Assembly: GCA_024743175.1 (NCBI GenBank)
Contig: JANSXA010000004.1
Location: 124,001 to 188,000, forward strand
DNA: 64,000 nucleotides
Origin: Pseudomonadaceae bacterium
Lineage (GTDB): Bacteria; Pseudomonadota; Gammaproteobacteria; Pseudomonadales; Azotimanducaceae
Direction: 5' to 3'
Under the pieces are notes generated by a model. It was given only the letters and a program-made list of their open reading frames with translations. It was not told the DNA's origin and made no database searches. Numbering within the stretch: position 1 is the stretch's first letter; each line of letters starts with the position of its first letter. A program made the translations under genes and the position numbers. Shown here piece after piece: positions 16,965-20,704 of this stretch.

Positions 16965-17894
16965 GTGATGGCTTCAGCATCTGCAGAACAACTTGCACAT
17001 CCGATGGATAACATCCCGGTCAGAAACCTGCGCTTTGACACCGAGACACTTCGCGGCGAAAGTGCATTGTGGAGCCACAGCAAGCCCGATTTTTCAATGT
17101 TCATCAACGCGCTTGGCATCCACGTCCCTTACTTTGAAAGGTTTTTGGTGGCGGTCTTTCGCGAGGTGCGCGCGGATATCGGCGATGCTGATCTCATGGG
17201 TGATGTCAAAGGCATTATTGGCCAGGAAGCCCATCACGCCTTCAACTTTGTCGGCTGGAACGAGGTGATGTCTGCCCGCTACCCTCGAGTCAGTGAGCTG
17301 GAAGCGGATGCAGCTCAGCATTTTGCAAACATGTCGACAAAGCGCAGCAGATTCTTTCAGGTAGGTTATGTTGCCGGATATGAAACGTTCACCTTTCTGG
17401 CGGGCGCCATTATTCTGGATCGGTATGAAGAGTTGATGGGTGATGCCGATCCGGTCATGCGTGCCTTGTGGGTATGGCACCAGGTGGAAGAAGTGGAACA
17501 CGGCGCAGTTGCCTTTGATGTCTACAAATACTTCTATGCCGAACGTGAATGGGCGCGTAAATTTTTTGTGCTGCTGGCGTTTGCACACATTACCAAGGAG
17601 ACACTGCGTGCCTATTTACACATGGGGCGCGTTGAGGGGTTCTGGCATCAGTCTGTTCGAGGTTTCAAAGCAGCTGATTTTTTTGTTCGTTTTGCCGCGG
17701 ACTTAGCGCGCTCGGCGTTGCCTGTGTTAAAGCGCGACTACCACCCGCGCAACCATCCCATCTGTAATGAAAATCAGAACAAGGCAGCGCTCGCGTGGCG
17801 ACAAAGATACGACGCCGGCTTAACAACCCTGGCTATTGAGCAAGGAGACCTGACCTGTGCCTTAGAAGGCAAAGCAGGAGGTTCCCGCCAATGA
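16965..17894 (+). CDS. metal-dependent hydrolase family protein (PF10118-type), ferritin-like diiron motifs
   Basis: GQEAHHAFNFVGWNEVM, GYETFTFLAGAIIL, WHQVEEVEHGAVAFDVYKYF. Confidence 0.75.
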   Translation: MMASASAEQLAHPMDNIPVRNLRFDTETLRGESALWSHSKPDFSMFINALGIHVPYFERFLVAVFREVRADIGDADLMGDVKGIIGQEAHHAFNFVGWNEVMSARYPRVSELEADAAQHFANMSTKRSRFFQVGYVAGYETFTFLAGAIILDRYEELMGDADPVMRALWVWHQVEEVEHGAVAFDVYKYFYAEREWARKFFVLLAFAHITKETLRAYLHMGRVEGFWHQSVRGFKAADFFVRFAADLARSALPVLKRDYHPRNHPICNENQNKAALAWRQRYDAGLTTLAIEQGDLTCALEGKAGGSRQ

Positions 17895-18373
17895 GTACAC
17901 AATCCAATGAAATGGTGCGCCGAATAATTGCTCATGCTTTGCTGGTACTGATTGTCGGTTTGATTGCTGGTGTTCTGCTGACTTTCTCGCTGCTCGGGGA
18001 GGTTGCACTATGGCCACTACCCGCAATTGACTGGCAGATTTTCGGTTCCACCCGTGGCTGGCAGGCAGCACACGTCGGCGGCATTCTGAATGCCGTCATG
18101 TTGGTGGCGCTGGCCTGGACAGTAAACTGGCTCAACGTCTCCGGGCGCGCGCTCACCTGGGCGGGCTGGGGTCTTATCTATACCGGCTGGGGCAACACGG
18201 TATTTTACTGGGCGGGCAATCTGGCCGGTAACCGGGGGTTGTCGGTAACTGACACTGTTTTTGGTCCTGGTGACCTGATGGGTGCGCTATCCTATTTTGG
18301 TGGTGCCAGCGCCATGTTTGCGACCTTTATCGCGGTTATTATTCTGGCTCGCACCGCTTTGCGCGACGGGTAA
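17891..18373 (+). CDS. styrene-oxide-isomerase (StyC)-like integral membrane protein
   Basis: GSTRGWQAAHVGGILNAVMLVAL, GWGNTVFYWAGNLAGNRGLSVTDTVFGPGDL resembles StyC pattern GSPEGWxxAHSGxxLNGMM...GWSNxxFYxxxNxxxNRGLxxxxxxFGPGD; ATGA overlap with upstream gene. Confidence 0.7.
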   Translation: MSTQSNEMVRRIIAHALLVLIVGLIAGVLLTFSLLGEVALWPLPAIDWQIFGSTRGWQAAHVGGILNAVMLVALAWTVNWLNVSGRALTWAGWGLIYTGWGNTVFYWAGNLAGNRGLSVTDTVFGPGDLMGALSYFGGASAMFATFIAVIILARTALRDG

Positions 18374-18377
18374 TTTA

Positions 18378-19019
18378 TTGTCCGCCCAGCTTCCAGTCAC
18401 GTTGTGGGGTGCCGGTACCAGTCGGACCATGCGGCCGGTGTGGGTTGCGGAAGAACTGGGGATATCCTACGAACTGAAGCCTATCGGGCCGCGCACGGGT
18501 GAAACCCAGACACCTGAATTCAGTCTGCTCAACCCTAAACAGAAAATTCCCCTGCTGGTGAGTGGCAGTCTGTGTCTGTCTGAAAGTCTGGCCATCTGCC
18601 GCTATTTAATAGCCAGCTTCCCCGATGATGCTTTATATATGCCACAAACTTCTGAGGCACGTGCCCGGGAAGATGAATGGTGTTGTTATATTTATGGGGA
18701 ACTGGATGAAACCAGCCTTTATGTGATGCGGCGCCACGGTGATCTCGGGCACATCTATGGCAATGCCCCCGAAGTAGTTGCGGCGGCGGCAGACTACGCA
18801 GCGAAACACTTTGCAGTCACTGCGCAACAACTGGGCGAGCGGCAGACTGTGCTCGCGGAAGGCTTCGGCCTTGCCGATATTATGTTGATGACCTGTCTTG
18901 ATTGGGCGATCGCTTATCATCTGTTGTTACCCGAAGGGCTCATGCGATATCGCAAACGTATTGCACAACGTCCAGCGTACCAGCGCGCAAAGGCGGCTAA
19001 TTTTGCACGCATAATCTAG
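18378..19019 (+). CDS. glutathione S-transferase family protein
   Basis: LPVTLWGAGTSRTMRPVWVAEELGISYELKPI..., LLNPKQKIPLLV, LSESLAICRYL; likely TTG start at 18378. Confidence 0.85.
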   Translation: MSAQLPVTLWGAGTSRTMRPVWVAEELGISYELKPIGPRTGETQTPEFSLLNPKQKIPLLVSGSLCLSESLAICRYLIASFPDDALYMPQTSEARAREDEWCCYIYGELDETSLYVMRRHGDLGHIYGNAPEVVAAAADYAAKHFAVTAQQLGERQTVLAEGFGLADIMLMTCLDWAIAYHLLLPEGLMRYRKRIAQRPAYQRAKAANFARII

Positions 19020-19094
19020 GCAGTTTGCTGTGCCTGCCATGGCACAATATGTAGCCAGGTCATGTAAAAGGCCGGAATAAACAAGGAGCAAGCA

Positions 19095-19859
19095 ATGAAA
19101 CCAGTCTGTCTGGTGATGGGTGCTGGTGCGGGTATTGGCGGCACAGTGGGTAAACGATTTGCGCAGGCAGGCTATCACGCCGTGTTGTGTCGACGCAGCG
19201 ACCAGGAAGGCCTGGATCGTCTGGTGAAGGCAATTCATGACGAAGGCTTCGATGCGACCGGTTTCCTGCTGAATGCCGTAACAGCAGACAGCATCGAAGA
19301 GGTTATTGCTGAAATTGAAAACAACATTGGTCCAATTGAGGTCGTCGTATTCAATCTGGGCGCGCAAATTGGCGATCGCTCATTAGCACAAACAACCAGC
19401 AAAGCTTTTGAAATGGGTTGGCGCATGGCTACCTTCAGTTTGTTCCGGTTAGCGTCAGAAGTGTGTCCGCTGATGGTTGAGCGCGGCAAAGGGACGATCC
19501 TGGTTACTTCAGCAACGGCTGCAGTACGGGGGAATGCAGGACAGCACTCGCATGCCGCGGCCATGGGCGGGCGTCGCATGTTGTGTCAGTCGTTGAACGC
19601 CGAGTTTTCCTCACAAGGTATCCACGTTTCACACATACTTGTGGATGGTATGGTTGATGCTCCAGATACCTTAGGGAAAATGTTAGGGCCGGAAAGGTTT
19701 AATGAAGTCAGGCAGGCGCGAGGGATGGAGCACGATGGCCTGATTCTGCCCGACAAGGTAGCCGACACCTATCTTCACCTGGCGCAACAGCACCGTTCCA
19801 CCTGGACTTTCGAGCTTGACCTGCGCTCATTCACAGACCGTCCCTGGTGGAACCACTGA
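19095..19859 (+). CDS. SDR family oxidoreductase
   Basis: VMGAGAGIGGTVGKRFAQAGYHAVLCRR, NLGAQ, degenerate catalytic region HAAAMGGRRML. Confidence 0.8.
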   Translation: MKPVCLVMGAGAGIGGTVGKRFAQAGYHAVLCRRSDQEGLDRLVKAIHDEGFDATGFLLNAVTADSIEEVIAEIENNIGPIEVVVFNLGAQIGDRSLAQTTSKAFEMGWRMATFSLFRLASEVCPLMVERGKGTILVTSATAAVRGNAGQHSHAAAMGGRRMLCQSLNAEFSSQGIHVSHILVDGMVDAPDTLGKMLGPERFNEVRQARGMEHDGLILPDKVADTYLHLAQQHRSTWTFELDLRSFTDRPWWNH

Positions 19860-20704
19860 TGGCTCTGTCGTTAATGCAGTTGATGGCGGTGCAAGCCGCT
19901 GAAGGCGAGGACCACTTCCTGGGCCAGGCTGAAGCTTACGGGTTGTTAGGCATTTATGGCGGACACTTTGTGGGTCAAGCTCTCGCAGCAGCCTTTGAGA
20001 CGGTTGAAGAACCGAAGCTGGCGCAGTCTTTTCACTGCTATTTCCTGCTGCCAGGCGACCCGAATGAGCCAATACATTATGCCGTCACAAGGCTGAGAGA
20101 GGGGCGTGGTTCAGACGTGAGGAATATCATCGCGAATCAGAAGAACCGGCCGATCTTCCAGATGACAGCGAGCTTTAAACTGTCCGAAGCGGGTGATGAA
20201 CATCAACCTGAGATGCCTGCGGTTGCAGATGTTGAGTCACTGCTGGAAGCGCGTAAGTCAGACGATGCTCAATTCAATCCGCCGCCGACTTTAGAGGGCA
20301 GAACTGAGATGCTGATGGCATCGGATCACTTTATTCAGCCAGAGTTTGTAGCGGGGCGAAGAGCAGAACTGAAGCTGTGGGTGCGTTGCAACAGCGAGCA
20401 TCAGCTCTCTCAGCGTGACTCGCAGATTGCGTTGGCTTTCATGTCTGACGGCACATTGATGTTTAATTCAGTTATTCCTCATGGATTGCCCTTTCAAACC
20501 CACCGTCTGACGAGTATTGATCATGCTGTCTGGTTTCATCGTCCTGCCGACGCGGCCGAGTGGCTGCTGTTTGACCAGCGCAGCAGTGCTGCGGCTGACG
20601 GCCGAGGAATGAACCATGGTGAAATTTACAACCGCCAGGGTCAGCTGATAATGACAGCTGCACAGGAATCAATGTTGCGGAAAATCGTGGACAAGAAGGG
20701 CTGA
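19859..20704 (+). CDS. acyl-CoA thioesterase (TesB-like double hotdog)
   Basis: GIYGGHFVGQALAAAFETV, SFHCYFLLPGDPNEPIHYAVTRLREGR, SIDHAVWFHRPADAAEWLLFDQRSSAA. Confidence 0.9.
   Translation: MALSLMQLMAVQAAEGEDHFLGQAEAYGLLGIYGGHFVGQALAAAFETVEEPKLAQSFHCYFLLPGDPNEPIHYAVTRLREGRGSDVRNIIANQKNRPIFQMTASFKLSEAGDEHQPEMPAVADVESLLEARKSDDAQFNPPPTLEGRTEMLMASDHFIQPEFVAGRRAELKLWVRCNSEHQLSQRDSQIALAFMSDGTLMFNSVIPHGLPFQTHRLTSIDHAVWFHRPADAAEWLLFDQRSSAAADGRGMNHGEIYNRQGQLIMTAAQESMLRKIVDKKG

What the first reader, a model, noticed from the sequence alone, without database searches (positions are those of the whole stretch)
16965..20704. Five-gene tightly packed run resembling an uncharacterised epoxide/aldehyde pathway
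Order: PF10118-type protein with QEAHH and EEVEH motifs, StyC-like membrane isomerase, GST, SDR, TesB-like thioesterase. Sequence shows an ATGA overlap between genes 1 and 2, a TTG start 4 nt after the gene 2 stop, and abutting genes 4 and 5. Known styrene and isoprene degradation uses a diiron or flavin monooxygenase, epoxide isomerase and/or GST, then dehydrogenases. Here a possible diiron-fold protein sits with an isomerase-like protein, GST, SDR and thioesterase, but without canonical styAB/isoA-F partners, so the substrate is unknown. That this is one pathway is inference.
Basis: partly seen in the sequence, partly recalled or inferred. Interest (0 to 1): 0.8.

Follow-up and report, generated by a model that had tools for sequence, protein, structure and literature searches.

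The report
Diiron-type oxygenase paired with epoxide isomerase
Two neighbouring genes, one resembling an uncharacterised iron-using oxygenase and the other clearly related to the haem enzyme that turns styrene oxide into an aldehyde, travel together across many bacteria and probably form a previously undescribed two-step 'make an epoxide, then turn it into an aldehyde or ketone' unit; the three genes after them are not part of the conserved unit.

Summary
The five genes are real, and all five family guesses hold. Gene 2 is a StyC relative by sequence (PDB 8pnu E 9e-18) and predicted fold (8pnu TM 0.84, the only significant match). It keeps the haem-ligand His and the catalytic Asn and Tyr, but fails the StyC equivalog cut-off (103 of 150 bits) and lacks Asp95. 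Gene 1 (PF10118) carries E57, E87xxH90, E139 and E175xxH178, invariant in all 80 relatives compared: a ferritin-like diiron site.

The five-gene pathway is not supported. No other locus examined has GST, SDR or TesB beside the pair; in relatives their best matches lie at other places. The SDR also lacks its YxxxK residues.

Genes 1+2 are a conserved module. They are adjacent in 37 of 76 named StyC-like loci (Gamma-, Beta-, Alphaproteobacteria, Myxococcota). In an evenly drawn sample of 246 gammaproteobacterial genomes, all 4 with a StyC-like gene have PF10118 next to one. In Marinomonas and Colwellia the two genes sit among ferredoxin reductase, aldehyde dehydrogenase and acyl-CoA ligase genes.

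Best reading: diiron epoxidase plus haem Meinwald isomerase, feeding an aldehyde or ketone into acyl-CoA catabolism. Substrate unknown. No paper found describes the pairing. A new variant of the StyAB-StyC idea.

The parts
16968..17894 (+). Gene 1, PF10118 protein (308 aa), proposed ferritin-like diiron oxygenase; ligand candidates E57, E87xxH90, E139, E175xxH178; alternative start GTG 16965
   Evidence: Pfam 154 bits; six ligand positions invariant in 80 relatives; AlphaFold model pLDDT 93 whose best PDB matches are mostly R2, R2lox, CmlI and desaturase folds, none significant
17891..18373 (+). Gene 2, StyC-like four-helix membrane protein (160 aa), proposed haem b epoxide isomerase; H61, N67, N102, Y106 match SOI H58, N64, N99, Y103; T98 in place of D95
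   Evidence: NCBIfam StyC E 1.8e-29, 102.7 bits, below cut-off 150; PDB 8pnu E 8.7e-18; fold match 8pnu TM 0.84, E 2.2e-9; residue roles from PMC11374702
17891..17894 (+). ATGA overlap of gene 1 stop and gene 2 start (translational coupling)
   Evidence: sequence; gene 1-2 spacing usually between small overlaps and +90 nt in related loci
18378..19019 (+). Gene 3, glutathione S-transferase (TTG start); not a conserved partner of the pair
   Evidence: GST_N 65.6 bits; closest relatives in the group (54-59% identity) lie away from the pair
19095..19859 (+). Gene 4, SDR-fold protein lacking YxxxK (reads HAAAM); widespread in the genus-level group, not linked to the pair elsewhere
   Evidence: Pfam adh_short 93 bits; in most genomes of the group at 66-78% identity, at places other than the pair; same H/M substitution in the relative G019
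19859..20704 (+). Gene 5, TesB-like acyl-CoA thioesterase, one of six such hits in this genome
   Evidence: Acyl_CoA_thio/4HBT_3; relatives at other places

Best explanation
Genes 1 and 2 form a two-gene catabolic module. The PF10118 protein is a ferritin-like diiron oxygenase that epoxidises a hydrophobic alkene or aryl-alkene, using O2 and electrons from a ferredoxin/reductase encoded elsewhere in this genome. The StyC-like membrane protein binds haem b through His61; ferric haem acts as a Lewis acid, helped by Asn102/Tyr106, and rearranges the epoxide to an aldehyde or ketone (Meinwald reaction). The carbonyl is then oxidised and activated to acyl-CoA by enzymes that vary between genomes. 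The GST, SDR and thioesterase genes that follow are local neighbours, possibly co-transcribed here, not part of the conserved unit. Shown: pairing, StyC fold and active-site residues, diiron ligand pattern. Inferred: epoxidation, isomerisation, substrate, electron donor.
For: Pair conservation: PF10118 directly upstream on the same strand in 37 of 76 named StyC-like loci at 46-60% identity. In an evenly drawn class sample, StyC-like genes occur in 4 of 246 genomes and PF10118 in 21; all 4 StyC-like genomes have the two adjacent, twice at under 35% identity to the window genes and once in reversed order. In 59 relatives, 12 of 15 StyC-like genomes have it adjacent. Many loci hold only the two genes on that strand. 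StyC-paired PF10118 proteins fall on one side of the PF10118 tree, and distances of the two partners correlate (45 pairs, Mantel r 0.70, 0 of 2000 permutations). Gene 2 chemistry: fold match to SOI only, His/Asn/Tyr conserved with mutational roles published (PMC11374702). Gene 1: six ligand residues invariant in 80 of 80 (one truncated row lacks E57), helical arrangement. Pathway context: in Marinomonas and Colwellia, PF10118 and a ferredoxin-NAD reductase face an ALDH (MdlD/StyD-like), acyl-CoA ligase, StyC-like gene and MalT-type regulator, with OmpW in Colwellia. Analogy: other StyC relatives sit beside other diiron oxygenases: FA_desaturase-fold with reductase and ALDH, and PF02332 soluble monooxygenase.
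Against: No activity is known for any PF10118 protein; the fold match to diiron enzymes is not significant (best E 0.16), and the AurF hit is below its cut-off. No reductase or aldehyde dehydrogenase is encoded in the run in this genome. SOI Asp95 is replaced by Thr. Most PF10118 genomes in the class sample have no StyC partner (17 of 21), so PF10118 chemistry need not be epoxidation. Within the window's own clade the partner distances correlate only weakly (r 0.34, 119 of 2000 permutations as high). A few StyC-like genes of that clade (L006, L008, L009) have no PF10118 nearby.
Confidence: 0.55

Rival explanations
1. One reading: all five genes act on one substrate, with epoxide formation, isomerisation or glutathione conjugation, SDR oxidation and thioesterase release.
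For: Same strand, overlaps at genes 1-2 and 4-5, 4-nt gap at 2-3; the only promoter-like site found in the region lies inside gene 5.
Against: No second locus with GST, SDR or TesB beside the pair among 76 named loci and the related genomes examined. The SDR is common in the group, lies elsewhere and occurs in genomes without the pair. It lacks YxxxK. The genome has five other TesB-type hits.
Confidence: 0.12
2. The StyC-like protein is a membrane cytochrome b that feeds electrons to the PF10118 diiron enzyme, rather than an isomerase; the product is then a hydroxylated, epoxidised or desaturated compound.
For: SOI haem b can be reduced with dithionite (PMC11374702); no reductase gene lies beside most pairs.
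Against: The substrate-side residues N67, N102 and Y106, needed for SOI function, are kept in nearly all paired members, which an electron carrier would not need; StyC-like genes also sit beside oxygenases that bring their own reductase.
Confidence: 0.15
3. The module detoxifies or remodels an endogenous unsaturated lipid or isoprenoid rather than growing on an external hydrocarbon.
For: Many loci hold only the two genes, without transporters or catabolic genes; the bacteria are mostly uncultured Pseudomonadales and relatives.
Against: Patchy presence among relatives (15 of 59 genomes) speaks for an accessory trait; the Marinomonas and Colwellia clusters look catabolic.
Confidence: 0.15

Closest known systems
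StyAB-StyC styrene side-chain oxygenation (styrene monooxygenase + styrene oxide isomerase)
   Same: Same logic: an oxygenase next to a haem-dependent membrane epoxide isomerase; gene 2 is homologous to StyC with conserved haem and catalytic residues.
   Different: Oxygenase is a PF10118 diiron-type protein, not the flavoprotein StyA; gene 2 lies outside the canonical SOI clade, lacks Asp95 and is below the StyC equivalog cut-off.
StyC-like genes beside FA_desaturase-fold oxygenases (Burkholderia, Paraburkholderia, Pseudomonas, Dyella, Nevskiaceae loci)
   Same: StyC relative beside a presumed diiron oxygenase, with reductase and aldehyde dehydrogenase.
   Different: Membrane histidine-box oxygenase fold; these StyC relatives branch next to canonical SOI, not with the window's clade.
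AurF/CmlI N-oxygenases and R2/R2lox ferritin-like diiron proteins
   Same: Two ExxH motifs plus two further Glu on four helices; among the best structural matches; weak AurF profile hit.
   Different: Below the AurF cut-off, no significant structural E-value; a separate Pfam family.
Isoprene degradation (isoA-F with GST IsoI/IsoJ)
   Same: Epoxide theme and a GST nearby.
   Different: No PF02332 monooxygenase found in this genome (control did not ring); the GST is not a conserved neighbour.

Membership tests
StyC / styrene oxide isomerase | StyC four-helix fold | tested here: met
   AlphaFold model matches 8pnu with TM 0.84, E 2.2e-9
StyC / styrene oxide isomerase | Axial haem ligand His58 | tested here: met
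   H61, invariant in all StyC-like sequences compared
StyC / styrene oxide isomerase | Catalytic Asn99 and Tyr103, Asn64 | tested here: met
   N102, Y106, N67 (roles from PMC11374702)
StyC / styrene oxide isomerase | Asp95 | tested here: not met
   T98; Thr is the usual residue outside the SOI reference sequences
StyC / styrene oxide isomerase | NCBIfam StyC equivalog cut-off (150 bits) | tested here: not met
   102.7 bits
StyC / styrene oxide isomerase | StyA monooxygenase in the genome | tested here: inconclusive
   PF17885 not found, but no control genome rang
StyC / styrene oxide isomerase | Isomerase activity on styrene oxide | not testable with these tools
   needs enzyme assay
PF10118 (Metal_hydrol) | Pfam gathering score | tested here: met
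   153.9 bits against 33.2
Ferritin-like diiron oxygenases | Two ExxH motifs plus two further Glu on four helices | tested here: met
   E57, E87xxH90, E139, E175xxH178 invariant in 80 sequences, on four different helices
Ferritin-like diiron oxygenases | Significant structural match | tested here: inconclusive
   most top hits are ferritin-like diiron or dimanganese proteins, best E 0.16, TM up to 0.46
AurF | Pfam AurF cut-off | tested here: not met
   19.5 against 29.6 bits
Classical SDR dehydrogenase (gene 4) | YxxxK catalytic pair | tested here: not met
   HAAAM at that position in the window gene and in relative G019
Isoprene degradation cluster | soluble diiron monooxygenase isoABCDEF | tested here: inconclusive
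   PF02332 not found in own genome, but no control genome rang

The most novel reading that the evidence does not exclude
PF10118, catalogued only as 'predicted metal-dependent hydrolase', is a family of ferritin-like diiron oxygenases, and its StyC-paired branch is an alkene epoxidase that works with a haem Meinwald isomerase; StyC relatives have been combined repeatedly with structurally unrelated epoxidases (flavin, membrane diiron, soluble multicomponent diiron, PF10118).
Probability: 0.45. Interest if true: 0.75.

Novelty: new variant of a known kind. Interest (0 to 1): 0.62.

Why it matters
It gives a testable function to a widespread protein family with no known activity and a possibly misleading name, extends the epoxide-isomerase family well beyond styrene degraders, and points to an unrecognised route by which marine and other uncultured bacteria may process alkenes. 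Enzymes that make and rearrange epoxides are also sought for making aldehydes.

Tried and rejected
Five-gene conservation: tested in 76 named loci and in related genomes, rejected. PF10118 in PDB by sequence: none by single sequence, only chance hits by profile. Literature on PF10118, COG3687 or a StyC-diiron link: nothing relevant in the held library. A conserved third gene next to the pair: none; the commonest other cluster in paired loci, DUF3604, occurs in 7 loci. Whether the 167-aa gene beside the unpaired PF10118 of G010 is a divergent StyC: no, it is a cupin. Partner co-divergence inside the window's clade: weak, not relied on.

Full report
What is there. The window holds five + strand genes at the stated place. 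Gene 1 (16968-17894) is a PF10118 protein; gene 2 (17891-18373) overlaps it by ATGA; gene 3 is a GST from a TTG four bases after the gene 2 stop; after 75 bp comes gene 4, an SDR-fold protein; gene 5, a TesB-like thioesterase, starts at ATG 19859 within the gene 4 stop. The gene upstream (APH-type kinase family) and the gene downstream (Kdo-kinase-like C-terminus) are on the other strand.

Gene 2 is a StyC relative. It matches the NCBIfam StyC model at E 2e-29 but at 102.7 bits, under the equivalog cut-off of 150. It matches solved styrene oxide isomerases in sequence (E 9e-18), and its predicted structure (pLDDT 90) matches 8pnu with TM 0.84 as the only significant hit in the PDB. In SOI, H58 binds haem b, alanine at N99 or Y103 abolishes activity, and alanine at N64 or D95 impairs it (PMC11374702). 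Gene 2 has H61, N102, Y106 and N67, but T98 in place of D95; Thr at that place is usual in StyC relatives outside the SOI reference sequences. A tree of 85 StyC-like proteins puts it outside the canonical SOI clade, in a well-supported group of 41.

Gene 1 looks like a diiron protein. E57, E87, H90, E139, E175 and H178 are invariant in 80 PF10118 proteins, paired or not with StyC (one truncated row lacks the E57 position). In a confident model (pLDDT 93) they lie on four different helices, the usual two-ExxH ferritin-like pattern. Most of the nearest folds are R2, R2lox, CmlI and acyl-ACP desaturase, but no E-value is significant and sequence profiles find nothing in the PDB. The diiron assignment therefore rests mainly on the ligand pattern; the oxygenase role is inference.

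The conserved unit is genes 1 and 2. Of 76 named loci found with a StyC-like profile, 37 have PF10118 directly upstream on the same strand. They come from Pseudomonadales and other Gammaproteobacteria, Burkholderiales, Rhodocyclaceae, alphaproteobacteria and Myxococcales. In many the two genes have no other same-strand neighbours. Because those loci were chosen by their StyC gene, an independent check was made: in 246 gammaproteobacterial genomes drawn evenly, StyC-like genes occur in 4 and PF10118 in 21, and all 4 StyC-like genomes have the two adjacent, one of them in reversed order. In 59 relatives, 12 of 15 do. On the PF10118 tree the paired members lie on one side of a branch, with three unpaired ones, against 24 unpaired on the other side (the tree draws on both kinds of sample, so sampling bias is possible). 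Distances of the partners correlate overall (r 0.70, 0 of 2000 permutations) but only weakly inside the window's clade (r 0.34, 119 of 2000).

Genes 3-5 are not part of it. Only the window's own genome shows GST, SDR or TesB beside the pair. The SDR is present at 66-78% identity in most genomes of the same genus-level group, including some without any StyC-like gene, and its places differ from those of the pair, the GST and the TesB. Where the SDR catalytic Tyr and Lys should be, it reads His and Met, also in a relative.

What it does. Marinomonas agarivorans and a Colwellia MAG give the best pathway hint. PF10118 followed by a ferredoxin-NAD reductase faces an operon of aldehyde dehydrogenase, acyl-CoA ligase, StyC-like gene and a MalT-type LuxR regulator, with OmpW first in Colwellia. 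Pseudomaricurvus alkylphenolicus has PF10118 facing a gene of the OmpW cluster, the StyC-like gene and the same regulator family. Other branches of the StyC family stand beside other diiron oxygenases: an FA_desaturase-fold protein with a Fer2/FAD/NAD reductase and aldehyde dehydrogenase, and a PF02332 soluble monooxygenase in Polynucleobacter. The recurring pattern of oxygenase plus StyC fold supports epoxidation followed by isomerisation to a carbonyl. Substrate and electron donor in this genome remain unknown.

Known or new. The logic is that of StyAB-StyC, so this is a variant of a known kind. The oxygenase family has no activity that I know of, and no paper found in the held library mentions the pairing.

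Noticed in passing
L049, L051, L055, L060, L063, L065, L066, L069, L075-L077 (around 6800-9600): StyC-like gene directly beside a PF00487 FA_desaturase-fold oxygenase, mostly with a Fer2/FAD/NAD reductase and aldehyde dehydrogenase in Burkholderia, Paraburkholderia, Pseudomonas, Dyella and others: a second StyC-oxygenase pairing.
   Followed up: partly
L053 8504-12956, L068, L064: StyC-like gene of the canonical SOI branch followed by a PF02332 soluble diiron monooxygenase gene set in Polynucleobacter and a Rhodocyclaceae MAG, in place of styAB.
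   Followed up: partly
L050 7496-8480 and L034 15349-15855: A second, diverged StyC-like gene, on a very long branch of the tree, next to a divergent PF10118; in L050 it lies in tandem with a normal StyC-like gene.
   Followed up: no
window 19095-19859: SDR-fold protein widespread in the group with the catalytic YxxxK replaced by HAAAM; function unclear.
   Followed up: partly
window 20724-22982 (-): 752-aa protein with a C-terminal Kdo/WaaP lipopolysaccharide-kinase-like domain fused to a long N-terminal part without Pfam match.
   Followed up: no
window 30682-31839 (-): Fusion of a DUF2141 domain with a MipA outer-membrane domain.
   Followed up: no
G008 C2 and G010 C447 (L136, L134): Unpaired PF10118 between an AMP-binding ligase and a cupin plus zinc alcohol dehydrogenase; PF10118 elsewhere next to P450 or FMO-type monooxygenase genes, again oxidative contexts.
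   Followed up: partly
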